A stretch of 64,000 bases of DNA from Theobroma cacao (taxonomy: Eukaryota > Streptophyta > Magnoliopsida > Malvales > Malvaceae), in contig NC_030855.1 of NCBI RefSeq assembly GCF_000208745.1, positions 22,907,748-22,971,747 on the forward strand. Direction: 5' to 3'. Shown piece by piece: positions 8,798 to 47,775 of the stretch. The notes below the pieces were generated by a model. The model saw nothing but the letters and a program-made list of their open reading frames with translations. It ran no database searches and was not told the DNA's origin. The number at the start of each line of letters is the position of its first letter. Positions within the stretch are counted from its first letter, which is position 1. The position numbers were made by a program, and so were the translations under genes.

Positions 8798-8830
<33 letters not shown>

Positions 8831-14696: not shown

Positions 14697-17081
14697 TCAG
14701 TTGAAATCAATTGCTGGATGTATGTCTTTGAGTAAACCGAGAACTTGCTGTATGGTGGGCCTTTTCGCAGGTAACTCCGCCGTACACAAGTATCCAACTC
14801 GGAGACTCTCCACCATCTCACTCTCTGATTCACCGCCGAGTCTCAACCTCGAGTCCAGCGCGTCAACTCCGACTCCTTCCTTCACTAGCCTCCTCACCCA
14901 CTTCACGTTCTCCTCCGTCCCCTGCTTCCCCGTCAAAAGCTCCAGCAACACAACACCAAAACTATAAACATCCATTTCCGCATTTTTTTCATCTTTTTTA
15001 TCATCCCTTTCCTTTTTACACCCGATATTCCTAATCCCGAAATCGGATATCCGAGGTTCGAGGTTGTCGGACAGTAGGACATTGGAAGCGACGAGGTGGC
15101 CATGGCTGGAACCCACGTGGTGGAGGTAGGCGAGCCCACGAGCAACTCCGACTGCGATGCGGTGGCGCGTGAGCCAGTTGGTTTTCTCGGGCGAAGAAGT
15201 CTGGGACCCCGCTCCGTGGTGATATTCCCACGTGTCGGTGCTCCAATCCTCCACGTTGGATGGCCCCGTTGGAAGCTCGTGTAACCAACGGTGTAAATCC
15301 CCGTTTGCCATAAATTCATGTAATACAAGCTTCTCCTTACCTTAAAGAAAAGTTAAAAAAAACGAAAAGGAAAAACATCAAAGATTTTGTTGTCAAAGGA
15401 TGCTGTACTAGATGTTTAAAAGAAAAAAACAATTCATAGTTAATGAGGTAGCAGAAAGAGCTATGCATGGGATCCAAAAGAACCGCCAAAATTCACGAAT
15501 GTCAACATATGTAATGATGGCATGAGTTAGATTTACGTGACAATAGATGCCAAGCAGTCTATGCAGTACGACAGCCGACTGATGTTTTCAAATTTTCAAA
15601 CAAACCCGTGAGGCTATTTAATGCAAGAACCTTTGTTTAGTCAAATACCAGAGATGTAATAATAACGATTTGGTACAGTTACCTGCAATGCAATAACCGC
15701 AGAGAGGCAGCAGGTTAGAGTGTTTGAGCCTGGAAAGGTCTTCAAACATGGCTATAGCGTCATCATGATCAACATCTCTGGCATGTTCAAGGACTTTGAT
15801 TGCCACGTGGAGGTCACCTGGGAGGATGGCTCTGTAAAGGGGTCCACATCTGCCTTCGGCGAGTACGGACTCCTTGCCGAAGTGTGACGTGGCGGCCATC
15901 AGGTCCTTGAAGGTCAAGTTCATCAATGGTTTGGAGGACATGATCACTGGTGCAGAAGTTGGTTCTTTGATGTCTGCTACCCACGATGAGCCCGATTCTG
16001 TCTCGAAAGAGAATGGCCCTGATTTTTCCATCTTGAAATTTGGTTGAACCGGTGTGGAGATTGCCCATTTGTTTCTCCTCGCGAGTTTTTTTCTTCTATA
16101 CGTACAGAAGAAGCAAAACACGAGTGAAGCAAGAAGAAACCCTGTACCACATGACAAACCAATGACCAAAGCTTTGGTCTTTGAGTTGGTTTTATGTTTT
16201 TTGCTGTGTGTTTTGAGGGGTAAATGTTTGTGGAAGACTTTGTGATTTGGCGTCAAGGAGTGAGTTCTAGTGTGATTGCTTGGTGTTCTTTTTGAAGTAT
16301 TGAAAACGAAATTTCCACCGTGAAAAAAAGCAGATTTGCCAAATCTTTGCAACTTGTCGAAACCAACTGAACCGGTGAAGTGGTTGAGCGAAATGTTTAA
16401 GAACTTTAAGCTATTGACTGGGGGGAAATCAGAAGGGAAAGTACCGTTCAGGGAGTTGTTTGATACATCTAAGTACTTCAATGAATGAAGAGCTGAAATG
16501 GGCTTCATGCTGCCGGAAATCTTGCAACTTGAAACATCAAGGTGCTCGAGCTTGGTAAGGTTGGTGAACCCAGAGGGAAGAGTACCAAGATCATTGTGTG
16601 AAAGATCGAGAAATTGAAGGTTGGAAAAACCAGAGAGTTTAACCGAGTTGGTGAACCTGTTAGCTGAAAGGTTTAGCAACCGCATCGATGAAGACGAACC
16701 ATTTCCCGAGGTGGGTTCAAACCCAATAGTCCCTCCAAACTTATTTTTGGACAGATTGACCTCAACCAGCGTATGAACAGACCAAAGCCAACCTGGAACG
16801 GAACCTTGAAGGGAATTGTTGGAGAAATCAATCGTATGCAACTGCGACATGTTCCTGAGAAATTTCCATGAAACGTTACCAGTCAAATTCTTTGAAGGAA
16901 ACTTTAATACCTTTATTGGGGGATATGAGCAGTTCACGTCCTGGGATTTCAACCAAGAGATATTGAATCCAGAGACTGATTTAAAAGCTTTAGAAACCAG
17001 TCCGTAGTCGGTACTGTTGCACGTAGACTGTACCGCTACCACCAGGGAAAAGAGAAGTAACGATCTGCCAAAAACTTCCAT
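14697..17081 (-). CDS. CaMRLK: LRR receptor-like pseudokinase, CaMRLK/MEE62-type, 2 exons
   Basis: This gene encodes a 680-aa plasma-membrane receptor-like kinase from two exons (15683-17081 and 14697-15340), joined in phase at a Gly codon. It resembles Arabidopsis At5g45800 (CaMRLK/MEE62), described as a calmodulin-binding receptor kinase. A signal peptide occupies about residues 1-20. The ectodomain has N-glycosylation sites and leucine-rich repeats (about 55-240). A His/Lys/Ser/Thr-rich juxtamembrane linker follows, then a membrane helix (about 304-328) and the kinase-like domain (about 395-675). The VAIK lysine (K429) and DFG (566-568) are present. The HRD motif is replaced by His-Gly-His (546-548), the glycine loop is degenerate (AEGRCGP), and the segment after DFG is short with no APE motif. 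It is therefore probably a signalling scaffold rather than an active enzyme. The frame is intact. Confidence 0.93.
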
Positions 17082-20000: not shown

Positions 20001-21194
20001 AGACATGAGTAGAGAAATCTAACTTGGGTTTTTAGTATTATCTTGCATGTGGATTGGTTTTATTTGTTATATAGCAACATGCTAAATATATATGATTGGA
20101 TTCTTGTAACGCTAATGACGTGATCATCACTCACAAAATAATTAAGCAACAAAAATTAATTTTGTAAAACGACGAGTCATTCATGGACACCAACAAACTT
20201 GCAAAAAAGGGTCAAAAAGAGCTGGAGATTAATAATCTTTGAAGCAATCTTTTTCTTACACCAATCTTGTCCTTGCAAATATATGGAAGGTTAAAAGTTG
20301 AAAACCTAATCAAAGTATGCATTACACTTTATATATACATATATATATATATAGACAAAAAAATATTAAAAATTATAATTAAATCAAGTACTCGTGTATA
20401 GTTTTTTTTTTGAATTATTTTAAATATACGTATCATTATCCTTCCATACACTTCGTAAATAATGCTAATGGGATAATATTTTACATTTCTTATGCTAATC
20501 TTGATAAGTACGGAAGACAAAGTATGAAACATATACAAATTTATTTGAGAAAACTAATTGTCTTATCGTATCTTCCTTAGACTTTAATGAAGATATTTAA
20601 ATTATTTTGTCCTCAAATTGATTAGATTTGATATCTTGGGTAGATTTTGAAATGGAGTCACAACTCAGAAGTGTCAGCAAACACACTTTCTACGGAATTC
20701 TGGAAAAGATTTCACCAACTTTCCGAAAGACGTAATAAACAACAGAAATAACCATGTTTATCCTTGCATGAGGGCCAAAGGCAGATTGTCAAGGCACTTT
20801 TTGATTCACGCACTTAAAACATTCATCATCCCATCCAGCAATCACCCAATCACATGGAGTGCAATCATCAAAATGAAAGAGGGGGGCACAATTTTTTTTT
20901 TAAATTTATTTTACTCATTTGATTATAAGTTCACTACTTCCTCGAAAATGAAACAGGCAAAAAAAAAAAGAAAAGTCAAAGTTCTCTTATTGGTTGCGCG
21001 TCTTTAATTCATCACCGACCATCAGCCTGACTTCCGCATATCCACGGCAACACCACAGTTATAGCCCTCGGATCCCAAAAGAAATCTCGCTCTATGTCAT
21101 ATCTAGCGGTGATTGAATGCAGATTGCTACATGCTGAGTTGATTTGGGCGGCAGGGGATGAGGAGAAGGGCGAGGTTCAAAAATGAGATATGCC

Positions 21195-21448
21195 GACGTG
21201 TAGTGCACGTATCCTCATACGCACCGTTAAGGAAGGAACACGTGGTGACCGGCAAATTGGGAGATCGGGCTGTTTGGTAGGGGCGGAATAGTTTGGTTTG
21301 TAAAAGATGGTTACTGGTCGGGCCTGTGTACGCTTCACAAAGAGTGACGTAATACGTTACACTTATACATCGATCGCTGTCCTCCCGAGTGTGTTGAGCT
21401 GTCACGTGGAAAAGGTCTCCGCGTCTCTCTCCTCGTTAATCCCCACGT
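21195..21448. promoter_or_regulatory. Cluster of ACGT-core motifs upstream of CIPK12-like gene
   Basis: Seven ACGT cores occur within about 255 bp. They include two full CACGTG G-boxes (21239-21244 and 21403-21408), one GACGTG near 21195, one GCACGT near 21206, a GACGTAATACGT pair near 21347, and a CCACGTAG near 21444. ACGT cores are binding sites for bZIP (ABRE-binding) and bHLH factors. The island is GC-richer than its surroundings and lies 1.4-1.65 kb upstream of the CIPK12-like start codon. Regulation by ABA or light is an inference. Confidence 0.45.
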
Positions 21449-21642
21449 AGATTCCTCCCGTTGTTCTCTTTAATCAAATGAGAGAAAATCATCAAATTAT
21501 CATAATAATAATTTTTTTAAAAGATCATAACAGTAAATATCAAGCGGGGAAGGTTTATGTTAAATCAAAAAATTATTGTAAATGTAGAAAATTTCCACCA
21601 ATGAATGATAGCCATTTTCAATAATTTGAATAGTGGTAGTTA

Positions 21643-21651
21643 AATAAATTT
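21643..21651. repeat. Left 9-bp target site duplication of MITE
   Basis: The sequence AATAAATTT directly abuts the left terminal inverted repeat of the foldback element. It is identical to the 9-mer after the right end at 22132-22140. Confidence 0.65.
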
Positions 21652-22131
21652 GATATAATATTTAAATAAACCTTTAAACTATTTTTAAAATATTTAAATA
21701 AAATTTTATTTTTTTAATGTGTTTAATCAAATTCTTATATTTTTTTTGAATCAAATAAATTCTTATAATTAATTATTGATTAATTATTTTTAGTGAAAAT
21801 ATCATTTGTCATTTTATATCTATGTGGCATTGACATATTATTAATGTAATAATGAAAAATATCACATAATTATGTTATTATATCAAATTAGTATGTCATA
21901 TAATTATTAATTATGATATGTTAATATATCATGTCAGCGTTACGCGGTATAAAATGACAAATAAGATTTTGACTAAATTATTAATCATAAAGTTTTATTT
22001 GATTTAAAATAAAAATAAAAATATTTATTTGACTCAAAATAAAATAAAAAACTTGATTAAACATATTAATAATATAAAGACTTATTTATATTTTTTAAAT
22101 GATTTAGAAACTTTTTTTTATATATTATATC
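21652..22131. mobile_element. Foldback MITE with 9-bp target site duplication (MULE-type)
   Basis: The two halves of this ~480-bp AT-rich segment are imperfect inverted repeats of each other along almost their full length. Outer ends read GATATAATAT and ATATTATATC. Matching inner blocks include TTTGTCATTTTATA (from 21805) against its complement ending near 21960, and TGTTTAATCAA against TTGATTAAACA. The turn is near 21885. Immediately outside both ends lies the same 9-mer AATAAATTT (21643-21651 and 22132-22140), the duplication length typical of Mutator-like elements. There is no coding capacity, so it is a non-autonomous element. Low sequence complexity is the main caveat. Confidence 0.75.
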
Positions 22132-22140
22132 AATAAATTT
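22132..22140. repeat. Right 9-bp target site duplication of MITE
   Basis: The sequence AATAAATTT directly follows the right terminal inverted repeat and matches the left copy at 21643-21651 exactly. Confidence 0.65.
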
Positions 22141-22778
22141 TTATAAACAAAAGATTATACTCTCGTAGAAGACTTTTTTTAATTAGGGAACTGTTTTTTT
22201 TTAAGTAAACTCCACCTTTAATTTTGTGTTTTTAACTTTTTTTTCCTTGTAGTATCTATTTTTCTTAATCAATAGCATGTGAATATTTTTGAATGATTAC
22301 ATTGTCTCAGACTACCGATAAAATTATCAAAATATTTTAAATTTAAAATTAATATATTTATTCACGCTTAAAAAGTATTTTGTAATTTTACTAATAAAAA
22401 ATTAATACACCCCTAGTAATTTCAAATTTTTTAAAAATTAAATTCTACCTACATAGCTTGTAATTTCAATTTTTATCACATTTTGTGTTTTTAATTTTCC
22501 GATTAACATCGTGTGATTTTTTTTTAAATGATAACTTAGAATTGTTGAGAAAATTCTTGAAAAAAACCTGGCATGTTAACATGTAAGTTCAAAGAACCCT
22601 CTAAAACAAAAACTAATAAAAAAAACCTAAAATAGAAAAACAAACACAGAGTATATTCCCCTCTTGTTTAAAAGCATCTCCTTTCTCCAACCCCTTAACA
22701 AATTCAATTTCTTTAGACCACTCAGTCTCCCACCCAATAAAAAGGTTAAAACGAACACTCTCAGTTGTCCTCCTTCGA

Positions 22779-22793: not shown

Positions 22794-22842
22794 CCATTCA
22801 AATTTCATTCTTTCAAATAACCAAACCCTAACCTCCACCGCA

Positions 22843-24261
22843 ATGGATTGCAGCTCCGTCGCCACCGCCAAGAAAGACGCAAACGGTGGCCAAGCTCTTC
22901 TCTTAGGACGCTACGAGGTCGGGAAACTCCTCGGACACGGCACTTTCGCTAAAGTTTACCATGCGCGCAACGTCAAATCCGGTGACAGTGTAGCCATCAA
23001 AGTGATCGACAAGGAAAAAATCCTTAAAGGTGGCTTAATCGCTCACATTAAGCGCGAGATCGCCATCCTACGCCGCGTTCGTCACCCGAACATCGTCCAA
23101 CTCTTCGAAGTTATGGCCACCAAATCCAAAATCTACTTCGTCATGGAATACGTACGCGGTGGCGAACTCTTTAACAAAGTTGCCAAAGGCCGATTAAAAG
23201 AAGACGCCGCCAGAAAATACTTCCAGCAATTAATCTCAGCTGTCAATTTTTGTCACGCGCGCGGCGTTTACCATCGGGACTTGAAGCCCGAGAATCTACT
23301 GCTAGACGACGGAGGGAATTTAAAAGTCTCCGATTTCGGGTTGAGCGCGGTTTCGGATCAGATCCGGCAAGACGGTTTGTTTCATACGTTTTGCGGGACC
23401 CCTGCTTACGTGGCACCGGAAGTTTTGGCGAGGAAAGGATACGATGCGGCGAAAGTAGATATCTGGTCTTGCGGGGTAATATTATTTGTTTTAATGGCGG
23501 GGTATTTACCGTTTCACGATCACAACGTTATGGCTATGTACAAGAAGATTTACAAGGGTGAGTTCAGGTGTCCGAGATGGTTTTCACCTGAGTTAACTCG
23601 GCTACTTACGAAGCTTCTGGATACGAATCCGGAAAAGAGAATAACGATTCCGGAAATCATGGAGAACCGATGGTTTAAAAAGGGGTTTAAACATATTAAG
23701 TTTTACATTGAGGATGATAAATTATGCAATGTTGAGGAGGACGACGATGACGTGGGATCATGTTCGGACCAGTCATCATTGTCCGAATCAGAAGCTGAGT
23801 TCGAAACTAGGAGGAAAGTTACTTCACTACCGAGGCCGGCTAGTTTAAATGCGTTTGATCTTATTTCGTTTTCCCCGGGGTTTAATTTATCTGGATTGTT
23901 TGAGGAAGGAGAGGAAGGAGCGAGGTTTGTTTCCGGGGCGCCGGTTTCGAAAATTATATCCAAATTGGAGGAGATAGCGAAGGTGGTTAGTTTTACAGTG
24001 AGGAAAAAGGATTGTAGAGTTAGCTTGGAGGGTTCTCGAGAAGGGGTGAAAGGGCCATTGACAATTGCTGCTGAGATATTCGAGTTGACGCCTTCTTTGG
24101 TTGTTGTGGAAGTGAAGAAGAAAGGAGGGGACCGAGGAGAGTACGAGGAGTTTTGTAACAGGGAATTGAAACCTGGGTTAGAGAATTTGATGCTGGAGGA
24201 ATCACGATCTACTGCTGTCGCTGCTGCCGATGTTTCACATTTACCTTCGGATTCGGAATAG
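22843..24261 (+). CDS. CIPK12: CBL-interacting protein kinase, CIPK12/19-type (intronless)
   Basis: This is a single-exon gene for a 472-aa SnRK3/CIPK serine-threonine kinase. CIPKs are activated by calcineurin B-like Ca2+ sensors and phosphorylate ion channels and transporters. The kinase domain has the Gly loop GHGTFAKV (31-38), VAIK lysine K53, HRD 144-146, DFG 164-166 and APE 191-193, with Thr182 in the activation loop. The regulatory half has an Asp/Glu-rich linker, the NAF motif (336-338, in [18 protein letters not shown]) and a PP2C-interaction region (from about 370). It matches the intronless CIPK12/18/19 clade, and the tail ending in PSDSE is like CIPK12. I chose the ATG at 22843 because it gives the clade's usual N-terminal length and has G at -3 and +4; no in-frame ATG lies upstream in the open frame. 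It is divergent from the CaMRLK-like gene. Confidence 0.96.
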
Positions 24262-29904: not shown

Positions 29905-32900
29905 AATCTCTCCTTCTGCTACACAAATCAATGCTGAAGGTTCTACAGGTAACAATGAATTAATGGATAAAACCATGCACTTTCTTGAACATTTTGCTAT
30001 GGTTTCTTTGGTTAAGAACCGAGACAATCAGTCCTTTTTGGACAAAGGACGAGAGAAGGGGCTAGGGGACTAAGCTGATTCAAAATTTGCCCTGCCAATC
30101 GGCACTAGGCCCGGTAAGAAATATTAATCCCCTTTGAAAATGGCACAAAACTTGGTATATTTTCTTTGTGGCAAAACTGCAAAAATCTTTACCAGAATTC
30201 CCCCCCCAATAAAAAAAAGACAGACAAAGAAAAACAGAAAAAGCAGACTTGTTCAAAAATAGCACAAGATGGGTGAGCCTCTATTATTGAAGGTCTGGAC
30301 ATAATATCCCTCCTATATATAGTCACTTTCAGAATGCTGATGTTTTGGATCTTGTAAACAGGGATCGGACGGCTACAATTATTATCTGGGTAACGTTTGG
30401 TTTTCATGCAGCATACATAGGAACTTCGAAGAAAATGCTTTCTCTAGACACGCGGCTGTTAAATGGATTAACATTGAATGATGAGATGAACATGAGAATC
30501 AAGTGGTGGACATCTCCAGCCAGTAAAAAACGAACTTCGGGAATATTGTGTATATACAAAATTCATGGAAATCCGCACAAATGGCACAAGATTTTTAGCA
30601 TGTGTGGGAAACGGGGTTGCCCCGCTTTCATTTGATTAACTACTAGATAAGCTTGATTTCCTTGGCAGTTGCTTTGGTAGAACAAGCTGAATCAGATCCT
30701 TTGTATTTGGTAATCTAGCTTGGTTGCGGGTATAATTGTATTTGGCAAGTCAGAATAGCTTTCTTTTGGTAAGTCAATTAGTGATTGTTTTCAAATCCTA
30801 ACATAATGATCTCATTCTTTCGTAATACATTGATTGCATTACATCATAAGTTTGGCAAAAACTATATCCAATAGCTACCAGGGAAAGTGCTTCGTTCCCT
30901 GATTGATGGATTAGAATCATAGCGGCTGGATAAAAAAGATCAGTAAAAATTATAAGGGTCTGCTGCTAATGATGAAGCTGAGCTTATGGTTCAATATGTT
31001 CCCCTAAAGCAGGAAAGAAAAGACTTCCAGTGCTGTGAATCTCTCTCCACTAAGCTATTCTGGCTACTTCATAAAAACTTCCCTCGGTGGGTTCGGGACG
31101 TTCAACATCACTGAAATTTCGGATCCATGCTTCTACCACCTCCACGTGGACGCCCAACAATCAAATGGGTCCATCTTAACGGGACCATAAGCCTCTCGCT
31201 TCCCCTTGAGATTTTCCAAGTGGGCGGACCACGTGGGTACAGTTTGGCCAACTGACCCACATATGACCAATGCTTTTAGCCACAAACACAACACAAGTTC
31301 CTGATATGAAGAGAGAAGAGTTAGTCGCTGGAATATCGATTCTAGGCAGCAAACGACCTTATCACGCGGGCATCCCTCGGTTGTTTGTCTTGGAGCTGGT
31401 CGACCTCAACGTCATATCACATCTTGAGCAGGTCGTTGTTCATTCTTGGGCCACATATCTGCACTACGCTCTTCTTTCGGGTTCATTAGAATCACTCATC
31501 TGTTCAAGTCTTCTTCTGCCCTATTTATGGACAGGTAGTTGAATTGAAACCTTTGCAACGTCCTTAGTGGACCTAACCATCCAAGTCTTTGCGCGCCCTG
31601 GCCCATACAGGCATACAGCCATACCCTACAGTGAGTTGAGATCTCTTGCTTCTCTAAACATGATTGTGGTTGAAACACGTGAACTCTATACAAGCTAGCT
31701 ATAAGATTAATAAAAAAAATCTAAACTGTCTGGGAATCATTTAATCACCTGATCAGGAGCCAATGTCGTCATTTAAATCGATGTTTGGTTATAAGGAGCT
31801 TGGTGGACACCACAAAGCTAATTTTGAATTATTTCGCCAGGTTTGGCCAGAAAATAATCTTGCATTCGTATCGCTCATCTTTGTTGTTCTTGTCCTCCTC
31901 TTGCTATATATTACTAGCTGTGAAAGATTCACGTAGAGACCAATTTGGATTGTTGAGTCCATGACAGGTGATAGAAGAATTCATTCTTTTGTACAAGCAC
32001 AACTGTCTCCCTGCTTGTCCTTCGGGGTAGACTGCTATGCCCATACCTTGGTGTTATCCTCTTAGAGGATTTCAAAACAATTGGTGGAGAGGGACCATCT
32101 TCTGAGCATTTCAACCACAAATTTCTCAGCTCACTATGGCACAAAAGATAGTGTTGCAGCAGGACACGGCAGAGGAAACAGGCTTCGTCAGTGCCACAGC
32201 GTATGGAAAACAGTCAGCTCTTTTTACCAGGTTGCACCTGGGATGAATCTTGCTGCCGCATCCATCGCACATAGCCCAGGATCATCCCATGGAAACCGGA
32301 TTTAACAAAAATTATCTGCACCAAGGAAGCAATAATATCGCTATTTGCACACTGCACGTTGCAGTCATTAAACTTCCAGAATTCCTTCACAAGGGGCACA
32401 CTCCACCGCCCTGATCCCTGCCCTTCCAAGACATTTGGCACCAAATAAATCAGTTCTCAGTACAACAGAAACATAGCAGAGTCATCTCACCACGAACAAA
32501 GTTTCATTCCCCTGTAATGGTAGTATTAAACTTGACTTGAATCCTCTACGAATTAATGGTCATATGTTTGGACTTTCTCACTTTATCCTGTTCATGGTTA
32601 ACAATCAATTGGTGGTACATGGTTATTTTTGTTTTGATCAAACTTTGCCTTCAGAATTTTGCACTGCGTGGATATTCTGTATGATTTCTATATTATGGGT
32701 TTGTAAAGAGCCCCAACCATTGGTTTGTCCCATTTCTGGGATGACTTGGGATGTCGCAAGAGCTTGAAACTGGATAAACAGCAGTGATGAGCCATTGACC
32801 GCCTCCCTTCCGTTTTTTACTTTCCCCTTCTCTTTAACCTCTAACCAAAATAATTCTGGATCATGTAACAGTGGATTTAAGGCATAATCCTATAGTCTTG

Positions 32901-33711
32901 TATGAGGCATTGTGGGTTTTACTGCTTTGGAGCACACTTAATTAATAAATAAGATAAACTATAAATAAATTAAAATTGTCTTTTTTCTTTCTCTTTTAGA
33001 GAATTAAAGAACATATTTTGTGTTCGGCTGGCACAAAATTTGGGTTTAGATCTTTTAGAATAGTGGTACAAGTTTTCGTATAATTTTAAGCATTAATTAA
33101 TAAGACTCATCCATGGTAATACACACTCTCATTTACCTAAGGGATGACATATCTATTTTTACATTAAAAATCTCAAATTTTAATTATTGAAATATTTTTT
33201 TATATATAAACGTATATTGATAAATTAATATTAAATTAATTAGCTGGAATAGTGAAGACTCCTAATAAATTTTCAATCCTAATAAATTAATATTAAATTC
33301 AATTAGATTTTTTTTTTTATTTTTCAAACCCAATAATCGGATGGAATACTTACACCTATAGAGATTTTTCAAACCTTTTTTTTTTTGGAACGTTGTAAAA
33401 TCTTATAATAGTATATATAGATAATTTTAGAATATAAATCTTATTTTTGCTTCACTTTACGTTTTTATTTTTATTTATTTGGGCAGGCCGCCTGTGGGAA
33501 TTAAGATGGGATGCCCGGCCCTTACTTTTATTGTTTTTTTTATATATTTCCTTTCTCGAAAAGAAAAATTGAGAAAAAAAAAATTCAATAGATACTACTA
33601 TTATATAGTTTTGCTTATACATCGATAGTACTAGCTAATTGCATTCAGATCAACTAAAACAATTACATTAAAATTTTTACATGCTTATGCTATAGATTAT
33701 ATATAGAATTC
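29905..33711. other. Intergenic: CIPK20-like upstream region and DOG1-like 3' flank
   Basis: The proximal part (29905-30100) is the probable leader of the CIPK20-like gene. Two G-boxes lie at 31143 and 31230. A 90-codon ORF with an ATG start (31270-31542) matches nothing I know. From about 32900 to 33700 the DNA is very AT-rich, with a direct repeat of AATAAATTAATATTAAATT (near 33221 and 33285). No gene is recognised. Confidence 0.55.
31143..31235. promoter_or_regulatory. Paired G-boxes upstream of CIPK20-like gene
   Basis: Two CACGTG motifs, both followed by G (CACGTGG, the ABRE form), lie at 31143-31148 and 31230-31235. They are about 1.24 and 1.33 kb upstream of the CIPK20-like start codon. 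This would fit ABA-responsive bZIP control, but distance and lack of expression data make it tentative. Confidence 0.4.
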
Positions 33712-34461
33712 TTAGTTCCTACCATGCCTATGATCTCTCGTCTTTCCCCACTCATGCATGCAAAGGTGAAGCTTCTTACTTGCCGCGAGAAAATCCACTC
33801 CCTGCACTGGTGTTAATATGCCAAGTAATTCCTTTAGCGTGCTTAGCCTCAGCTTATCAGCCTCCTGGAGTATGTTCGCCATAGAACTCTCGTGCTCGTC
33901 CAGTGCACGATCTACTTCCCCACTTGATTCACCGACCCGGCACAACCTTTTTGCAATCACGGCTATGGGCTGGTCTGCTATGTTCTCCTGCAAGCTCGCC
34001 AAGTTATTCGACAGTCTCTCTTCTTCCTTCATAGTCTTCATGTGCAAATCGTTTATCTTTCCCAGCTGTGTTGCTGAAATCTGGCCAAGGTCTCCCCTGG
34101 CTAAGCCCTGGAGGATTTCAAGGAGCTGGAACTCGACTTGTGACCCACAGAGTGCGTAAGTGAGTCGAATGTACATTGAGGGTCTGCAACCCCCAATCCA
34201 AAGCAAGGAGTTCTCCAAGGCAGTGTTCCATGAGGGTGCAAAAAGGCCTGAAACATCCTGGCGAGACAGTTGGTTTCTTTTGTCAATGTATTCTTGGAAA
34301 CTGTTGATGGACTTCTCAGCCAGTTTGGCATACGTGTTTTCGGATGAGTTGACATCATTTTCTTTTAGGTTGAGGGCTTGGAGGAGCTCGCTTAACTCTT
34401 GTTCTTGAATGGTCATCCATTCCTGGAAACAACATTGTAAACGTTGGTTATCGCTAGCCAT
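33712..34461 (-). CDS. DOG1: DELAY OF GERMINATION 1 (DOG1) homologue, single exon
   Basis: This gene encodes a 249-aa DOG1-domain protein. Arabidopsis DOG1 sets seed dormancy by binding AHG1/AHG3 PP2C phosphatases and haem. The N-terminal motif CFQEWMTIQEQEL matches the SYLEWMSLQ region of Arabidopsis DOG1. The block PSWNTALENSLLWIGGCRP, then LTYALCGSQ, and the C-terminal TPVQGVDFLAASKKLHLCMHEWG are very close to it. The two histidines reported to bind haem are conserved (H232 and H236). The start ATG at 34461 gives the normal length. The coding region is continuous, whereas I recall introns in Arabidopsis DOG1. Position next to a CIPK20-type gene, as in At5g45820-At5g45830, supports orthology. 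It is divergent from the DOGL4-like gene. Confidence 0.93.
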   Translation of the reverse strand: MASDNQRLQCCFQEWMTIQEQELSELLQALNLKENDVNSSENTYAKLAEKSINSFQEYIDKRNQLSRQDVSGLFAPSWNTALENSLLWIGGCRPSMYIRLTYALCGSQVEFQLLEILQGLARGDLGQISATQLGKINDLHMKTMKEEERLSNNLASLQENIADQPIAVIAKRLCRVGESSGEVDRALDEHESSMANILQEADKLRLSTLKELLGILTPVQGVDFLAASKKLHLCMHEWGKTRDHRHGRN

Positions 34462-34530
34462 TTCAATTGTGCTAATTAAGCGATGAAACCAAGGGATTAT
34501 ATTTGGGGGTTTGGGTTGTTATTACATGCG

Positions 34531-34660
34531 TGTCCTTTTCCACATGTGAAGCCAAGGGATCCAAAGCTAGAAAAAGAAAAAAGAGGGGATGGGATTGTGT
34601 ACTTTTGTGTGCTTCAATTTGGGTTGTTTCTTTGATCTTTTTCACATGTGGAAAAGGACA
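34531..34660. repeat. Perfect 20-bp inverted repeat upstream of DOG1-like start
   Basis: The 20-mer at 34531-34550 (TGTCCTTTTC plus CACATGTGAA) is the exact reverse complement of 34641-34660, with a 90-bp loop. Each arm contains the palindromic E-box CACATGTG. The element lies 70-199 bp upstream of the DOG1-like ATG, so it is in the core promoter or 5' UTR. Short direct repeats accompany it: TTTGGGTTGTT at 34510 and 34618, and CCAAGGGAT at 34489 and 34552. Confidence 0.85.
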
Positions 34661-35218
34661 AAGTTTTCAATCTTGCTACCGGATCGATACCAAGGCTACA
34701 TTATCTTACTAGCAGTGGAGTAGTATTTTACTTCAGTTTTCGTTGGCTTATTTTACAGGTTAAAACACAAGCTCCCCTCCGCTTGCAGGGGAGTTGATCA
34801 ATAGCATTCATTACTTTTCCCTAAAGCCACTTAAAGACTGATCAGGTGGGTGAGGGTTGAACTTTGAATGGACTTCCCACCGACACTCTTGTCCAGGCGT
34901 TAAATATATCGTTATAGGATCCCTAGGAGAAGGATAAAGCTTTGGCGACACAAGCAAGGCTCTAGCTAGGTCGGCTCCGGTGGTAAGAGAAGCATTAATG
35001 GAGGTATGATTTAACACATAATGCTTTACGCGATAGTTGAGAAACATGTAGAAATATTCAAATTGCATGATGTAGTTGAACTTAATTCAAACTACGAGAT
35101 CATGAAACTGAATCTAGGCTTGTTGTCAATAAGCTTATGATCAGATAGTAGTAAATAGTAATTCATGAACGGTGTATGGTTATCTAAGTATTACATTTAT
35201 CAGTCGAATATGCGCATA

Positions 35219-35285
35219 CACGTGGAAAATGTTTACTATGACTCACCCACACAAAGATAACTCACTCACCCCACGTGCCCATGCA
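35219..35285. promoter_or_regulatory. ABRE/G-box plus RY composite in the DOG1-DOGL4 spacer
   Basis: Two CACGTG boxes (35219-35224, in ACACGTGGA, and 35272-35277) lie 53 bp apart. The second is followed after only two bases by CATGCA (35280-35285). An ABRE next to an RY element is the known architecture of seed promoters driven by bZIP factors with B3 factors such as ABI3, FUS3 or LEC2. It lies about 0.8 kb upstream of the DOG1-like ATG and 1.8 kb upstream of the DOGL4-like ATG. Confidence 0.55.
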
Positions 35286-36401
35286 ACACGATTAAAATCA
35301 ATGCGAGTCTTTGCCAAATGCCAATTCCTTTCTCTGTTGTCTCGTTTCTGCTAACCCTTTTTTTCATTTTCCTGAAATTGTCGTTTCTGTTGTCCAATAT
35401 TCAAGCTTGGGGGGTGGGCTTTCATTTTGTCAGGGAGGGTTCAGGCAGCGGTTGTATAGGGTGGATGGTTTATGTGGCCTGTGCAACTTTTACAAATTTA
35501 TGTAATAAAATAGTTCATGGCTTAGCAAAAAAAATAAAAAATTTCAAGCTTGGAATAGAAAAACTTTTATCAGGTTCAGGTGGTCTGCAGGGATGGATAT
35601 TAATTTGTTAGACGAAAAATGAACACAAACCATCAATTACCGTCTGTTCAAATGCAACAACAGGGAGCAGGGCTTTATTCTGATCAGCATATAAACTACT
35701 TCTCTCAAGTTCCAAATAAAATTCTTCGTCTTTTTTCTTATGGAATGGAATCCCAACTCTCCCAGGCGGAGAAATATATATGGATAGGGAAATTGTGTTC
35801 TCTCATAACAAGATTCGGCCCAAGAAGTCTAGAGGGCCTAGGGTTGAAATGTGAGAATGAATTGCCAATATTCACATGTGCAATCATAGGAGTGTGATCA
35901 AGCGTAGAGCCTGTTTGATTTGGAAGGCTTGCATGAATATCAAACATCGTACGCCAAGGATCAAGAACGGAAGCTCGAGTTCAGGCCAATTTGAGTCCAA
36001 CCAGCTCATACCTAGCTTTTGGTGTTTTGTTTTTTCAATATTTTTCTTTAAAGAAAAAGCTTTAAAGGCGTTAAGGTACCAACATATGATCTTTACTTGT
36101 CCCGAATTGCTATTCTCACCAATCACTTGATTCCTGTTCAAAAGATTTGAGTACAGACTTTGGAGGTACAAATTAAAATTTTACATTAATAGTACTAATA
36201 TATTTGTATTTATTTTATATATTTAATAAATGTCATAACTAGCCAGAAGATTAATCTTATGTAAAAGTTTTAAACAGGAATAAATGTTTTGGTGAATTGT
36301 TCTGAGTATATGACATGCTACTTTGAACAAGAGCAAAAATTAAATATCAAAGCTCACGGAGTATAAATGCTTAAAGAACATGGTGAAGCAATTCCCAGAT
36401 G

Positions 36402-36407
36402 CACGTG
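36402..36407. promoter_or_regulatory. G-box upstream of DOGL4-like gene
   Basis: A CACGTG palindrome (in GCACGTGTTT) lies 650 bp upstream of the DOGL4-like start codon. It is a potential ABRE/G-box. Confidence 0.4.
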
Positions 36408-36685
36408 TTTTGTAATGGGCAGAATGATTTCCTTAGTTCCAGAAAACCAAGCACGAAGCAAGTTCTTAACGACAAAAAATATAAAAACAGAAACTAGGCG
36501 CAAAGGTATTTTGCACCGCAGCCAACCAAAGCCCCTATCAGTGCCCGGTTCATAGAAGATAAAAGGGTGGGACCCGATGAAGTTTTGTGAAGGAACATCC
36601 GGAGCGAGTTCCACGTTGAACCAAGATTCTTTCCTGTGACGACACGTTTGTCCACACTAGAACCTCAACACCAGCTGGTGAGACG

Positions 36686-36693
36686 CATGCATG
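36686..36693. promoter_or_regulatory. RY element CATGCATG upstream of DOGL4-like gene
   Basis: CATGCATG, the core RY repeat bound by seed B3 factors, lies 364 bp upstream of the DOGL4-like start codon. This agrees with the seed-specific, ABA-induced expression reported for Arabidopsis DOGL4. Confidence 0.5.
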
Positions 36694-37056
36694 ACTCCTC
36701 AAGGCAGTCAAAGGTTGAATGGAACTAAGGGTTCGAGAGAGAAACAGAAACTACATGGACTCATGTCATCCCTCTTTTGCAAAGCGTCATATATCAGCTC
36801 AGCCCTCCCCTGCAAAATCCACTACTAGGTCACTGCTGCGCGTAAGCCATGCACTACCCTTTCTCACTCTAACCGTGTCCTATTCTCCTTTGTCCATCTG
36901 TTCTCTCCCTCAAACTTCCCCTTTACTACATGTATATATCTGTCGCATGCTGGCACATTTTTCTTCCAAGTCCTAATTAAGTCATCTTAATTAAGTCATC
37001 TCTATAACCCACACTTCACTGCCCCTTCGATTACCTGCAAAAGGTGAAAAAAAACA

Positions 37057-37812
37057 ATGAAGACCCCAGTTGGAGAAAGGTTCTCCCAGTTCTTCGAGAA
37101 GTGGATTTGTCAACTTGATGATTACTTGCAACAGCTTCTCAGGGTGTCCAAAGAAAGTTTAAGTAGTGAAGCTGATGAACAACAAGCTCTGGTGTCAAAA
37201 CTGACAGCCCATTACAAAGAATTCTACACTGTCAAATGGACTGCTGCTCATGAAGATGTGCTTGCCTTCTATTGTCCAGTTTGGTTAAGCAAACTAGAGA
37301 ATGCTTATTCATGGCTTACTGGTTGGAAACCATCTATGATATTTCGACTCGTTGAGTCAATGAGGAGGACTCGGGTGCCTGGCCCGGGTTTGGCTGAGTT
37401 GACGGAGGAGCAGCTAAGGAAGATAGAGCAGTTAAGAATGAAGATAAAGTTAGAGGAAGAGAAGGTGGAGAGGGAAATGGAGAGGCAGCAAGTGGCATTG
37501 GCGGACCGCAAGATGGTCGAGCTGGTTCGTATGGCGAGCCGAATAAGGAAAGGGGAGTTGGTGGGTCAGGTGGACGGGTTGGTTGAGGTGGCGATCAAGG
37601 GTATACTGGCAGGGCTGGAGAGGGTCATGAAAGCTGCTGACTGTGTGAGGCTCAAGACTCTGAAAGGAGTTTTGGATGTTCTGAACCCATCGCAATCTGT
37701 GGACTTTCTGGCTGGGACGTGCATGCTTCAGATTCAGCTGAGGCAATGGGGCCAAAGAAGGGATGGCCAGAACGGGCCTAGATTGGAACCACACAACAAT
37801 GCTCTTTTCTAA
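37057..37812 (+). CDS. DOGL4: DOG1-like protein, DOGL4-type, single exon
   Basis: This gene encodes a 251-aa DOG1-domain protein that resembles Arabidopsis At4g18650 (DOGL4) more than DOG1. Arabidopsis DOGL4 is reported as seed-expressed, ABA-induced and imprinted, acting on seed-storage genes. The N-terminus FSQFFEKWICQLDDYLQQLL has the DOG1-family F..W pattern. The central PVWLSKLENAYSWLTGWKPS aligns with the DOG1 block LENSLLWIGGCRPS, and the C-terminal block is LNPSQSVDFLAGTCMLQIQLRQWG. The haem-ligand histidines of DOG1 are replaced by Q225 and R229. A Glu/Lys-rich coiled-coil-like segment spans about 115-150. The next gene is the MDIS/MRH1-like receptor, as in the At4g18640-18650 order. 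Confidence 0.92.
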   Translation: MKTPVGERFSQFFEKWICQLDDYLQQLLRVSKESLSSEADEQQALVSKLTAHYKEFYTVKWTAAHEDVLAFYCPVWLSKLENAYSWLTGWKPSMIFRLVESMRRTRVPGPGLAELTEEQLRKIEQLRMKIKLEEEKVEREMERQQVALADRKMVELVRMASRIRKGELVGQVDGLVEVAIKGILAGLERVMKAADCVRLKTLKGVLDVLNPSQSVDFLAGTCMLQIQLRQWGQRRDGQNGPRLEPHNNALF

Positions 37813-38792
37813 GAAAAGTTACTACTGAGTTTTGTAACTGCAAGTCATGGTCTATTCTGTTCATCTGTCATCTGTCTTATCCATGAATTTGCACGCTTTA
37901 CTTTCAGTTGCAATTTAGGAGTAATTTTCTTTTAAGGGAAATTTGAGATGTTGCGTCAAAGAATTGAGTAAACGACCATGGCCTGCCGGGGTGAGCAAAC
38001 AGTAGCAAAAAGACTGATTTCGGCAGAGCCATGCACATTGTTGATGATTACCACTAATTGTGGCAACAGGGGTGGGACGTTCACATTCTCAAAACTTTAC
38101 TTTTAGTCTGTCACTTATAAAGTCACTGCTTTTGCTTTTTTGCTTTTCCTGCATTTAGTTATTGAAATTCCTGACTACGGAATAAATTGAAACTAGCTCG
38201 TGACAATGGCGATCAACAATTATACAGACAGTCAATCTTTCTCAGGGTCTGAAGTATTGAAACAAGCTTTGTGTCTTGGACCAATAGTGCATAAACCCAA
38301 CGAATGAATAATGAACATAAACAGAGCATTAGGGGTTCACTAATAACAAAACAACTGAAACCAATAATATTAATTTGGAATAAAAAACAACCCCCAAAAT
38401 TTTACGTGTCAAATATCAAATACTGTGGCAGAAGTTTTAAAAAAACCTCAACAACCTAATTATATTTAAGGGGGAAAAAAGAATGTCAACAAATTGATAT
38501 GTTTGCTATGTTAGTTTTTTACATCACAGACTTTAATCACAAAATACATACATCTATTACAATTCGGTACACAATCCCCATTAATGAGTATGCAACAAAC
38601 TTTTATTGCAATGAAGTGTTGAGGATTGATGGGGGAAGAATATTAAACAAATGAATAAATAGGATATGTAATATATGGAAACAAAGTGACCAAAAAAAGA
38701 AGTGATTTGGAAACCAATTATAAGGAAAAAACTATTCCTTTGCATTTTGATACAAAGTAAGAGAGAGACTTTGACTTACAACACAGAGAAGT
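37813..38792. other. Intergenic between DOGL4-like and MDIS/MRH1-like genes (convergent 3' ends)
   Basis: This ~1-kb stretch holds the two convergent 3' flanks. It is AT-rich and contains no ORF or repeat that I can support. Confidence 0.6.
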
Positions 38793-41700
38793 TCAGCCCA
38801 CTGATAAAATCTCAAGTTCAGCCCACCACAAGGGGGAAAGTCTTGGGGTAGCTTGCTCAGGTGGGACATTAATCACTTCCCTTAATTTCGAAGTCACATC
38901 CTTCATCGTTGGTCTTTGCCTTGGATCTACTTCGATGCACTCTTGTATAACCTCACAGATTACATCAAGCTCGTTATTTTTGAAAGATTTGAGGGTTGGA
39001 TCAATCATGTAGCTGATGCTCCGTTTATCATTCAAATATTGAGCAGCCTGGCAAGCAAGTTCATGATTATTAGTTTACCAAAAAGTACGGTACAGCAAGT
39101 CAAGTGTAGCTTTTGCCTTGCGGCCAAGTTTAGAAAAGGGAGGGATGAGAGTGCACTACAAAATCATTAGGTCATGAGGGTGTCATCCTGAACATACCCA
39201 TTTCTCAAGAGGCCCTTGCTCTTCAGAGTAAGGAAGCTTTCCGGAAATGATTTCGAGTAACAATATTCCAAAACTGTAGACATTCACTTCAGGGTCAGCG
39301 AAAGGTGGCAATTCAGAATGCTCTGATTCAGCATCACCTGAGGTTTTCAACTTAAGTGCAGGCTGCGAACTACAGATTTCCGCAACCTGCAAATGTAAAC
39401 GAGTAAAGAGGATGAGTGTCTTATAATGGCAAGAACCTGAATAAAGCCAATTGACACAGAAATTGCTGTACCTTCGCAGCATAATCATCTGTTAGAAAGA
39501 TAGCAGCTGAATTTAAGTTTGTATGCGCTACGGGAGGATTCAGATCATGGTGCATATACTGAAGACAATAAGCTACACCCATGATGATTCTCATCCTTGT
39601 ATTCCAATCAAGATGTTCCATTTCTTTAACTGAAAGCACAAATAAATATTTAACCTCATTTTTCAAATGAGAAGAATCAACATTGAGTAAAATATCCACC
39701 AGGAAATATGCATGTAAGTGAAAATATAACCATGCAGATGCTCAAAAAGGGTTCCATTTGGAGCATATTCGAACACCATCATCCTGTTGAAAGGTTCATC
39801 CTCCTCGCAGTAGCCAATAAGGTTGACAAAGTTCTTATGGTTAACTCGTGACAATGTATCAATCTACAGTAAGCACCAATAAAATAATTGATTAAAAAGT
39901 TAAAATAAAAAAGATGATCAGGAGATTTAAAGTATAAAATTCACTTGTGTTATGGCCAAAAACTGTCACATTTATATTTTGTAAACATAATAACAACAAA
40001 CCTTTCTCCGATAGGCCATCTCTGAGCTCTTTGACCACACTTTCAAAGATGAAACGTTGATTGATGCAACAGCAATCTCAACCCCGCTGGAAAGTGTCCC
40101 TTTGTACACTGTACAGCACCCAATTGTGTCAATTATATTGCTAAAATCCTCACAGGCTGTTTCCAGTTCTGATCGGTTTAGCTTAGGCACCCCTGCATTT
40201 CAAATAAACAGATAATTAAGGTTTTTCTGCATTCAACAAAAATAGTACCAGGGTTATCATGCCAATGGATTCAAACTGGTCTGGACATTATCTCAGATCA
40301 AGGCACCCATGCTAAGTATATTAAAATCAGCAACATCAACTGATATCTAGCCCAAAAATTAGACACTGGATAAGTAATGAAATCCAATGACCCTACCATA
40401 TGTTTCAAAGCACATTAAGCAAAGTTTCCATTCTCCAAATTTGGAAACCAAAATAACTGGGGCCCTCATCAAATGTGACAAAGATGAACATTAAGGCTTT
40501 GTCAATTGAAAAAATATCTTTAAGAATCTTTTGATTAAGCATTGCTAATTCCTACCATAATCAAACCATGGATTATGGAATAAAAAATCTGAATGATCAA
40601 ACTATGCAATTTCCAAGGAATAATGCATTTGAATTATCTTCATAAGCATATAGGATGTAATGCCATTGTGAAGATATAATTAGATCAACTAGCAATATTA
40701 ACAGGCTCACCAATCAACAGTATAACTAGACAAATCATTTGGCTTGTAACACATAATCAAGCAAAGCATTTAACAACTACCTGTAATAAAAGCTTTCTGC
40801 AGCTGTCCGCTTAGTCCAGTTTTCCAGGGACCAATGGTTTTTGCTGCTCGTTTCCGGCACATGATAACCATGGCCACAACCACAAGCAAGACTACCACAC
40901 AGGGAATGACAATGAGATATTTCCATATATTCCCAGAAGGTGAAGGTTGTTGAGCAGTTGGCTCAGCATTAGAGGTTTGGGATGAGTGGTCCACAGGCTT
41001 TGAATCAGTCCCTTGAAGGGAAGAATGAAGCTGTGGGGCTGGGGCATGAGATTGTTTCTTTGTTCCCTTTGGCACAGCAGGGAAAGTCCCACTACTTCTG
41101 GCAGTTGGGAGAGAAATGATCTGTTCAGTGGAAGACACAGCAGCAGCAGGTGCAGCTGGGAGGTTCTTCGACTGCTCAAGCAGCCTACGCCGTGCAAAAG
41201 GGACAAGATTCCTTATGTTATGGGCCATTTGTTGCTCAGATGAACCTAGTAAGAACAAAAAAAGTCATTGTTTCCCAGAAGCCATACTTTGCAGTCCAAT
41301 GGACTGAGATTTTGCAATTGTTTTACTCACCAGGCACATCACTGCAGCAACTGTCTTGATGCTCATCCAGAGAGTCCTTTTGCAACTTGAACCTTGTAAG
41401 AAGGTAAATCATGTGAATAAAGTAAACGAGATGATTACAAAAACTAAAATAACATAACCAACAATAAAAACAAACATAGGACAGTAAAAACAAATAATGT
41501 AAGTTCATACAGTGGTAATGGCAAGGCATTGAGGTAATGTATAAGAGCTCCTTTAATTGGGATTAACAATGACTCTGCCTGGTTCAGTTGTTTCAAACTG
41601 CTCTGCCAGATGCTGTCAACTTGGGCAATAAATAATCAGAAAACTAGAGGGCTAGAACTCTTGATAAGTTTAATTCATTGGTTAAAAAGTAACAGAGCTG

Positions 41701-43788
41701 TAAAATTTAGCATATTAATCTCCCACATGCCACATTTCAAAGCAAATTTACAAAAACATTTTCTAGAATCAAGTCCAAAGTATTTTAGACGAAAATAGGA
41801 CTATATAATAATTCTGCTAGCAGCACTCTAAGTCTGAGAATATGTTGGGGCCATCACTTGGCATGGTGTGCTATGACCTAATACTGAAGCTTATCCTAGC
41901 ATAACTTACTAATTCAAATTGCTTACTAGGAATATGAAATATGCGTTATCTAGATATGCTTATAGACTGATTCTCACATGAAATTCAATATTTTGTCCAT
42001 CCAAACTCCAGAGTTTGAACAGCAAAATGAGGCAGAGCAATGAATGATTCCATGATACCCCAATTAACGTATGCACTAGAATTAACACTTCACTTGGGAA
42101 TACAAGGCAGTGATGTAGATTAGAGAGGCATGTTAAATGATTTTAAAGGGAGTTCATCTCCTCCCTTATTTTCATATAATTGTGTTGCAGTTAGACCCTA
42201 GAAACTAGGCATTTAAAGAAATTTTAGGCCAATGAACCTCAAAAATCAGTCTGCTTTGTTTATATGTATCTTCTTCTAACCTATCTCTAGCCAGGAAATA
42301 ATCAAATTGATGCCATATTCATAAGGTCAACACAAAGATGGCTCTTACCAAAGTCCAAACTTTCTATTTACACAGCCAATTCCAGTAGCCGACGTCAGTG
42401 TAAGATTTTCATCAAACTGCAAATCAGAGAGCAAGTTTAGCCTCCCAAGATCTGAAGGAATGTTCCCCTCAAATTTGTTGCCACAAAGTAACCTAAGGTG
42501 GAAAGGAAATTTAGTTAAAGGTAAGAACATAGAAGAAAGCCTCATGCACAGCATAAATTTACAAAAGTGAACTCACAAACGTCTTAGAGACAGCATTCTG
42601 CCTATTTCTGCAGGAATTGTTCCACCCAAGTTATTTTCCCTTAAATCCAATAGCTCCAGCTTCATAAGTGCGCCAAACTCCTTTGGAATGGCACCAGAGA
42701 AACGGTTTTTATAGAGCACACTGTTAATATAAATAGCAAGAAAAAGATTCAGAATGTTTAATTAGGTTAAGCAAGCATTCGGATTTTATCAAACATGCGG
42801 CTGCATAGTAAGACCTACATACAGTGCCTCTCATTAACAGAATTCCTTGAACTCACAATAGGTTAATCTATTGCAGATGCATAAAACCAGGGTGAGAGGA
42901 AAGTTATGCGCGAATGACAAAAAAGAAAACCAGTAAACAAGAATTGAAATGTGAAAGATATGGCAGAATTTTGTATCCAAATCATATATTGGGACAAAGT
43001 AGTAATTGATAATCACAACATCAGATGATGCTGACCATCATCGGGATTGTTGGTCGTGTGAGAAGAACAAAAGTTAAAAGTAGATAAAGAATTTCTGAGA
43101 AAAAAAAACAAAAATCCACTTATTTGCAGCAAGATTGTGAATCCTTACAGTGATCTTAAGTCGCTTAATTTCCTGAGCTCAGGCGCCAGTGTTCCTTCCA
43201 AAGAAAGGGCACTCAAATCCCTAAAAGCAAACAACAAAATAGACATTAGAACATTCATCCGTTCACAGTTTACAGCATAAGGAACTTCTAAAATGAAAAC
43301 TCTTTAACTAAGCTCCATACTCCACTTTGACAGACCATTCCCATACTAAAAATTAATTACCTATCAAAAGAAGAACATAGCAGGGATTCTTCTCTAAACA
43401 AACGTATTTCTTTAATGAGTATCCAAGGGACTTACAGCATTTGCACTTTACTGTCGACACAATGAACCCCGAACCACATGCAGGGTGTGCTGTCATTGGA
43501 ATTCCAATTTTCAAACGCACCATAAGAATCAGAATCAATTTTCGCTCGAAATTCTAACAAAGCCAAACCTGCATCTCCAAATCCAATTAAAATCAAAACA
43601 AACAAACTAGAAGAAGAAAACAAACAATTAAATTCAACAGCATTGTAAAAAAAAAAAATCAAACAGAAATACCCGAAGAAGGAATTACCTTCAGAGTTAA
43701 TGGCCAAAGACTCTTGAATCATGAAACTTGGAATGAAGAACAAGAAGCTTAATAAATGGAATCCAATTGGGTTCCATCTACCCCCCAT
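38793..43788 (-). CDS. MRH1: LRR receptor-like pseudokinase, MDIS1/MRH1-type, 13 exons
   Basis: This gene encodes a 715-aa receptor-like pseudokinase of the MRH1 (At4g18640, also MDIS2) and MDIS1 (At5g45840) family, linked to root-hair growth and pollen-tube attractant perception. Exons from the start are 43689-43788, 43436-43568, 43149-43220, 42577-42720, 42349-42492, 41511-41612, 41331-41392, 40781-41245, 40002-40192, 39731-39863, 39472-39629, 39198-39386 and 38793-39047. LRR exons are 72 bp or 144 bp (2 x 72), one repeat per 72 bp. A signal peptide, an LRR cap with CMWFGVHC, about five LRRs and a Ser/Pro-rich stalk lead to the membrane helix (about 361-381). The VAIK lysine is Ser451, HRD reads AHT, and DFG is absent, so it should be catalytically dead, as known for this family. 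All exons join in phase. Confidence 0.93.
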
Positions 43789-47733: not shown

Positions 47734-47775
47734 TCTTTCTACCTGTAATCTATTGGCCGGGTTGCTCCTCTAATC

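What the first reader, a model, noticed from the sequence alone, without database searches (positions are those of the whole stretch)
14697..43788. Apparently unduplicated DOG1 supercluster: CaMRLK - CIPK12 - CIPK20 - DOG1 - DOGL4 - MDIS/MRH1
Six genes in a row match two Arabidopsis blocks that I recall as At5g45800-At5g45840 and At4g18640-At4g18700, each of which has lost part of the set. Here the CIPK12/19 type, CIPK20 type, DOG1, DOGL4 and both receptor pseudokinases sit together. The block joins Ca2+/ABA kinases with two dormancy factors. Its conservation through genome duplication suggests selection on linkage or shared regulation, although plain synteny would give the same picture.
Basis: partly seen in the sequence, partly recalled or inferred. 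Interest (0 to 1): 0.75.

Follow-up and report, generated by a model that had tools for sequence, protein, structure and literature searches.

The report
Old DOG1-neighbourhood gene block in cacao
Cacao keeps, in one stretch of chromosome, six signalling genes around the seed-dormancy gene DOG1; the core of this neighbourhood is inherited from early eudicots, which is ordinary shared gene order, with only a modest hint that the central genes share hormone-responsive control sequences.

Summary
The six genes are there, at the stated coordinates; five have complete reading frames and the sixth (MRH1/MDIS type) was read exon by exon. The genome is cacao-like (DOG1 99% to T. cacao). DOG1 and DOGL4 fall in separate clades; cacao DOG1 has both histidines matching the Arabidopsis heme ligands, DOGL4 neither. 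Both receptors have degraded kinase motifs. CIPK20 was supported by tree; the CIPK12/19, CaMRLK and MRH1 names were not tested by tree.

Locus tags and contig lengths of homologues link DOG1, DOGL4 and CIPK20 in many dicots, apparently on one 138-kb scaffold in the basal eudicot Macleaya; 8-9 species per comparison showed no linkage. Cacao has two further convergent CIPK pairs without DOG1, so 'unduplicated' fails for the CIPK pair.

Selection on linkage is not supported: Arabidopsis keeps DOG1 and DOGL4 on different chromosomes, six species show no DOG1 between CIPK20 and DOGL4, and cacao (recalled) had no recent genome duplication. Plain inheritance suffices. One lead: DOG1 and DOGL4 are head-to-head over 2.6 kb with three G-boxes; both CIPK upstream regions have G-boxes too, the receptors' have none. 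That excess is weak against the window's own background.

The parts
14697..17081 (-). CaMRLK/MEE62-like LRR receptor, two exons, 680 aa; HRD motif reads HGH (catalytic Asp absent), DFG and beta-3 Lys present
   Evidence: Pfam LRR_8, PK_Tyr_Ser-Thr; spliced model; name by position and At5g45800 in PMC5226650, no tree
20765..22764 (.). upstream 2 kb of the CIPK12-type gene with 2 G-boxes (21239, 21403)
22843..24261 (+). CIPK of 'CIPK12/19 type', 472 aa, intronless, intact kinase motifs and NAF
   Evidence: Pfam Pkinase, NAF; motifs; groups with cacao C9:38376727 and C4:23019942 copies 100/98; the CIPK12/19 name is untested
28552..29904 (-). CIPK20-type kinase, 450 aa, intronless, intact
   Evidence: Pfam; homologues named CIPK20 or CIPK20-like in Durio, Ricinus, Mangifera, Manihot, though many others in the same list are named CIPK5; trees
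29908..33711 (.). CIPK20 upstream / DOG1 downstream region with 3 G-boxes (31143, 31230, 31676)
33712..34461 (-). DOG1, 249 aa, single ORF; H232/H236 match At His245/His249 heme ligands
   Evidence: PF14144; tree; ligand columns; model and TGA fold
34462..37056 (.). divergent DOG1-DOGL4 intergenic region, 2595 bp, with 3 G-boxes (35219, 35272, 36402) and 6 RY cores
   Evidence: counts against shuffles and against window and C9 background
37057..37812 (+). DOGL4, 251 aa, single ORF, lacks both heme-ligand His
   Evidence: PF14144; 97% to Herrania 'DOG1-like 4'; tree; ligand columns
38793..43788 (-). MRH1/MDIS-type LRR receptor pseudokinase, multi-exon; beta-3 Lys absent (AVAS), HRD reads HTN, no DFG
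   Evidence: LRRNT_2, kinase domain in joined exon pieces, exon frames; no tree, no full splice model

Best explanation
The six genes are an inherited gene neighbourhood whose core (CIPK20, DOG1, DOGL4) goes back at least to the early eudicots. Cacao shows it whole because its lineage had no later genome duplication (recalled); Arabidopsis shows it in two partial copies, most simply because each duplicate lost different members. The genes act separately. DOG1 (binds heme, reduces activity of the PP2C AHG1) and DOGL4 (seed storage programme, lowers ABA sensitivity when overexpressed) are a very old linked pair, head-to-head in cacao, that has diverged in function. The two CIPKs are catalytically intact kinases in a tail-to-tail pair. 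The two receptors act without normal kinase activity. Shown here: anatomy, clades of DOG1, DOGL4 and CIPK20, ligand residues, linkage in other species. Inferred: biochemical roles (from Arabidopsis papers), the history of loss in Arabidopsis, absence of selection on linkage.
For: Gene content. The 33 DOG1-list rows form one side of a branch (SH-aLRT 99), the 25 DOGL4-list rows likewise (80); Magnolia and basal eudicots are in the DOG1 clade and basal eudicots in the DOGL4 clade. Linkage by tags or equal contig length: DOG1-DOGL4 in 26 species: 9 near, 1 on one small scaffold, 7 on one long contig (Protea 253 tags apart), 9 not shown. DOG1-CIPK20 in 24: 5, 2, 8, 9. DOGL4-CIPK20 in 27: 11, 2, 8, 6; two Hibiscus species that the script left out are not shown either, so 8 of 29. 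Macleaya: all three on contigs of the same 137,780-bp length. Tetracentron: DOG1 and DOGL4 at consecutive tags. Arabidopsis set from PMC5226650 (passages).
Against: No linkage shown for Vitis rotundifolia and Tetracentron (CIPK20), Camellia, Buddleja, Rehmannia and others; the lists were cut at 120 rows and clustered at 90%, and the Vitis DOG1 row is a divergent one. 'Same long contig' is weak. In pepper the tandem DOG1-family pairs reported are DOG1-1/DOG1-2, DOGL5 and DOGL6 pairs, not DOG1/DOGL4 (PMC12251688, passages). G-box clustering in the centre of the block is more than plain inheritance predicts. No plant genome could be compared directly, and linkage of the two receptors and the CIPK12-type gene in other species was not tested.
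Confidence: 0.8

Rival explanations
1. The core CIPK20-DOG1-DOGL4 (with the CIPK12-type gene) is kept together because the genes share ABA/seed-maturation control, DOG1 and DOGL4 through a common divergent intergenic region.
For: Head-to-head DOG1/DOGL4 over 2595 bp with 3 CACGTG (expected 0.16; 0 of 200 shuffles reach it) and 6 RY cores (expected 1.64; 4 of 200); 3 G-boxes upstream of CIPK20 (1 of 200) and 2 upstream of the CIPK12-type gene (0 of 200); none in 2 kb upstream of CaMRLK or MRH1. 0 of 630 sliding windows in 160 kb of C9 hold 3 or more G-boxes. A cipk20 insertion may affect dormancy, or may affect DOG1 regulation (PMC5226650, passages).
Against: 45 motif-by-region tests were made. 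Against the window's own 14 G-boxes and 80 RY cores the excess is weak (G-box p 0.017, 0.047, 0.069; RY p 0.11), and 21 of 246 sliding windows of the window itself hold 3 or more G-boxes, some of them over CaMRLK coding sequence. DOG1 and DOGL4 are on different chromosomes in Arabidopsis. DOG1 is not annotated between CIPK20 and DOGL4 in 6 species. No expression data.
Confidence: 0.15
2. The three convergent CIPK12-type/CIPK20-type pairs are remnants of the eudicot triplication, the block having lost DOG1, DOGL4 and receptors in two of three copies. (This concerns the history of the CIPK pair and is compatible with the best explanation.)
For: Exactly three pairs (C6, C9, C4), all tail-to-tail. 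A tree joining the C9/C4/C10 copies with core-eudicot CIPK20 is not rejected, p-AU 0.25.
Against: In the best tree monocot CIPK20-type proteins are closer to the window copy than the C9, C4 and C10 copies are (88/86, not starred); identities 72-75% against 63-65%. The homologue rows were the nearest hits, which favours this. No other of 12 window proteins was found in 160 kb around the C9 pair.
Confidence: 0.3
3. DOG1 and DOGL4 in the window are a recent tandem duplicate, unrelated to the Arabidopsis genes.
For: They are adjacent members of one family.
Against: Only 27% identical, each nested in its own dicot-wide clade, pair linked in basal eudicots.
Confidence: 0.01

Closest known systems
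Arabidopsis chromosome 5 DOG1 region: MEE62 (At5g45800), CIPK19 (At5g45810), CIPK20 (At5g45820), DOG1 (PMC5226650, passages)
   Same: Same gene kinds by locus number; [quoted passage not shown]
   Different: DOGL4 is on chromosome 4; the MDIS1 position (At5g45840) is recalled
Arabidopsis chromosome 4: MRH1/MDIS2 (At4g18640; PMC5353636, passages) and the DOGL1-4 cluster (PMC7238029, passage)
   Same: MRH1 type and DOGL4 type, adjacent here too
   Different: Extra DOGL1-3 copies; At4g18650 and At4g18700 are recalled
DOG1 family groups DOG1, DOGL4, DOGL5, DOGL6 (PMC12251688, passages; Nishiyama 2021 is cited there and was not available)
   Same: The two window genes fall with proteins named DOG1 and DOG1-like 4
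   Different: In pepper no DOG1/DOGL4 tandem pair is reported in the passages seen
TGA transcription factors TGA3/TGA7, C-terminal domain
   Same: Same fold (TGA7: TM 0.73 by query, E 1.1e-8)
   Different: Pfam finds no bZIP domain in the window proteins

Membership tests
DOG1 | PF14144 domain above cut-off | tested here: met
   78.2 bits against 27
DOG1 | groups with dicot DOG1 proteins, apart from DOGL4 | tested here: met
   33 DOG1-list rows one side of a branch, SH-aLRT 99; includes Carica and one Brassicaceae row (Microthlaspi, no gene name); no Arabidopsis sequence was available
DOG1 | two heme-ligand histidines, At His245 and His249 (PMC5989226, passages) | tested here: met
   H232 and H236 in cacao; both present in 83 of 110 aligned DOG1-list rows and 0 of 117 DOGL4-list rows. 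The match to the At positions rests on the spacing of four in the last helix, since the At sequence was not on hand
DOG1 | AHG1-binding motif DSYLEW (PMC5989226, passages) | tested here: inconclusive
   Of cacao CCFQEW only the last two letters agree; the Trp is as conserved in DOGL4 rows (117 of 117) as in DOG1 rows (103 of 110), so it does not discriminate
DOG1 | imposes seed dormancy | not testable with these tools
   needs genetics
DOGL4 | groups with proteins named DOG1-like 4 | tested here: met
   97% to Herrania and 89% to Durio DOG1-like 4; 25 DOGL4-list rows one side of a branch, SH-aLRT 80
CIPK | Ser/Thr kinase plus NAF domain | tested here: met
   both genes
CIPK20 clade | groups with named CIPK20 proteins | tested here: met
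   Durio CIPK20-like sister 100/100, Ricinus CIPK20 next 96/95; but the same clade holds many proteins named CIPK5 (Magnolia, Acorus, Ananas) and no Arabidopsis reference was on hand
CIPK12/19 clade | groups with named CIPK12 or CIPK19 | not tested
   no named reference obtained; place beside CIPK20 agrees with At5g45810
MRH1/MDIS receptor pseudokinase | LRR ectodomain and kinase domain lacking catalytic Lys and DFG (PMC5353636, passages) | tested here: met
   LRRNT_2, kinase domain, motifs read
MRH1/MDIS receptor pseudokinase | groups with MRH1/MDIS1 in a tree | not tested
CaMRLK (At5g45800) | groups with At5g45800; calmodulin binding | not tested
   architecture only

The most novel reading that the evidence does not exclude
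DOG1 and DOGL4 form an ancient divergent gene pair whose shared intergenic region, with G-boxes and RY elements, jointly controls two opposed seed-maturation regulators, and CIPK20 next to it is under the same ABA input; the linkage is then functional across eudicots and was broken only where duplicates allowed it.
Probability: 0.12. Interest if true: 0.65.

Novelty: new member of a known kind. Interest (0 to 1): 0.33.

Why it matters
It shows DOG1 and DOGL4 as an old linked pair, already present in early eudicots, of which only the DOG1 side carries the heme-ligand pair. It gives an outgroup locus for the Arabidopsis dormancy QTL region, in a crop whose seeds (recalled) have no dormancy, and names one intergenic region to test for shared control.

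Tried and rejected
Recent tandem duplication of DOG1/DOGL4: rejected (27% identity; separate clades). A whole duplicated block at C9: of 12 window proteins only the two CIPKs matched in 160 kb at E up to 1e-4 (in that script the second exon of CaMRLK was out of frame, its first 466 aa were sound). The same check at C4 was not possible. RY enrichment: not significant against the window background. A first count of heme-ligand histidines by simple pattern was replaced by the aligned count. Papers: ten searches, of which 46, 47 and 51 found nothing; for the rest I saw listings, and passages of PMC5226650, PMC7238029, PMC5989226, PMC12251688 and PMC5353636. Nothing seen describes a DOG1-DOGL4-CIPK20 block beyond the Arabidopsis genes of PMC5226650; PMC12481868 and PMC12975751 were listed but not opened, and Nishiyama 2021 and Qiao 2024 were seen only as references. 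Recalled, not seen in any call: absence of genome duplication in cacao since the eudicot triplication, the names At4g18650, At4g18700 and At5g45840 for DOGL4, CIPK12 and MDIS1, the Criollo assembly size, and the seed behaviour of cacao.

Rows dropped: 10 of 120 DOG1-list and 3 of 120 DOGL4-list proteins outside 220-300 aa (Tetracentron DOG1 among them) were left out; 61 of its 230 rows were used in the tree. Davidia and Kalanchoe have no contig data and were not counted; Hibiscus cannabinus and H. syriacus (DOGL4-CIPK20, not linked) were left out of the script and are added in the text; two Hibiscus CIPK rows have cut-off species names. The Carya tag distance compares two assemblies.
Full report
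Where it is. The window is part of a 324.85-Mb genome, at C6:22907748-22971747. Its DOG1 matches a T. cacao record at 99% over 86% of the query, so this is cacao or a very close relative; the assembly size agrees with the Criollo genome as I recall it.

The genes. Pfam and reading-frame checks confirm six genes in the stated order, strands - + - - + -. CaMRLK has two exons and a kinase domain whose HRD motif reads HGH. Both CIPKs have intact kinase and NAF motifs. The MRH1/MDIS gene lacks the beta-3 lysine, reads HTN for HRD and has no DFG, much as described for Arabidopsis MRH1 (PMC5353636, passages); its exons were read piecewise. Gaps between neighbouring genes are 5.7, 4.3, 3.8, 2.6 and 1.0 kb. 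Flanks: an O-FucT gene, a nucleobase permease, a tRNA-Leu, a cysteine oxidase, and a Myb-like gene that Pfam finds only below its cut-off.

DOG1 and DOGL4. Two protein searches (120 of 204 and 120 of 322 hits listed) fall into two clades in a 61-row tree. The cacao pair is 27% identical. Of the other cacao DOG1-domain genes three were placed in the tree and fell outside both clades; the rest are no closer in tblastn. DOG1 has the pair of histidines, spaced by four, that matches the heme ligands His245/His249 of Arabidopsis DOG1 (PMC5989226, passages): both in 83 of 110 aligned DOG1-list proteins and in 0 of 117 DOGL4-list proteins. A predicted model (mean pLDDT 86) puts both in the last helix and has the fold of TGA3/TGA7.

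Linkage elsewhere. Locus-tag numbers and contig lengths in the homologue tables show a conserved neighbourhood. DOG1-DOGL4, 26 species: within 4 tags in 9, same 138-kb scaffold length in 1, same long contig in 7, not shown in 9. DOG1-CIPK20, 24 species: 5, 2, 8 and 9. DOGL4-CIPK20, 27 species: 11 (up to 11 tags), 2, 8 and 6; with two Hibiscus species that the script omitted, 8 of 29 are not shown. 'Same long contig' is weak evidence and includes pairs hundreds or thousands of genes apart (Protea, Liquidambar, Ulmus, Acer). Macleaya (all three genes on contigs of one 138-kb length), Macadamia (DOG1 and CIPK20 type, 80 kb) and Tetracentron (DOG1 next to DOGL4; its DOG1 was too long for the tree) carry the arrangement back to basal eudicots. 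Against it, the listed CIPK20 rows of Tetracentron, Vitis, Camellia and others are not linked, and in pepper no DOG1/DOGL4 tandem pair is reported (PMC12251688, passages). Orientation in other species could not be seen, and the receptors and the CIPK12-type gene were not followed outside cacao.

Duplication. NAF-domain places in the genome (23 matches) include three pairs of a 12-type and a 20-type CIPK, all tail-to-tail: the window (NAF places 4.9 kb apart), C9 (14.8 kb) and C4 (39.4 kb). The trees put the members in matching groups. Around the C9 pair no other of 12 window proteins was found in 160 kb; PF14144 has no match on C4 and none within 4 Mb of the C9 pair. The best tree places the split of the window's CIPK20-type gene from the C9, C4 and C10 copies before the monocots, but a later date is not rejected (p-AU 0.25). 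So the block is unduplicated for DOG1, DOGL4 and CIPK20 proper, while its CIPK pair belongs to an older duplicated set.

Does linkage matter? The Arabidopsis region is in print: MEE62, CIPK19, CIPK20, DOG1, with a cipk20 insertion possibly affecting dormancy directly or through DOG1 (PMC5226650, passages). DOG1 and the DOGL1-4 cluster are on different chromosomes in Arabidopsis (PMC7238029, passage), so linkage is not needed there. Motif counts give the one hint of shared control: G-boxes between DOG1 and DOGL4 and upstream of both CIPKs, none in 2 kb upstream of the two receptor genes, and 0 of 630 windows in C9 with 3 or more. The effect is weak against the window's own background (p 0.017, 0.047, 0.069; 21 of 246 sliding windows of the window itself hold 3 or more), and 45 tests were made.

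Verdict. A correct observation of conserved gene order, with gene assignments that hold where they could be tested; the evolutionary inference that fits is the ordinary one.

Noticed in passing
G000:C9:38361952-38376727 and C4:23019942-23059304: Two further convergent CIPK12-type/CIPK20-type pairs, plus a single CIPK20-like copy at C10:20985931.
   Followed up: partly
DOG1-list homologues: The heme-ligand pair is altered in several rows: HN in six (four named Solanum or Lycium, two unnamed) and RQ in four (Primulina, Rehmannia, Phlomoides, one unnamed), suggesting repeated loss of the ligand pair.
   Followed up: no
L037 (G000:C1:8082200-8084900): A DOG1-like gene whose C-terminal match to DOG1 continues in another frame: an intron, a frameshift or an assembly error.
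   Followed up: no
G000:C8:3644126 and C8:3815809: A NAF place and a DOG1-domain place 172 kb apart on C8; may be chance.
   Followed up: no
Hevea, Shorea, Rubus, Xanthoceras, Diplodiscus, Ulmus: CIPK20 and DOGL4 at consecutive locus tags with no DOG1 annotated between them; Xanthoceras and Ulmus have DOG1 rows elsewhere or in another assembly.
   Followed up: no
window 34462-37056: Head-to-head DOG1/DOGL4 intergenic region with three G-boxes and one CATGCATG element.
   Followed up: partly
window 47749-51850: Plant cysteine oxidase (PCO_ADO) gene pieces on the + strand beyond MRH1.
   Followed up: partly
window 8758-8838: tRNA-Leu (AAG) on the + strand, found by ARAGORN and Rfam.
   Followed up: yes
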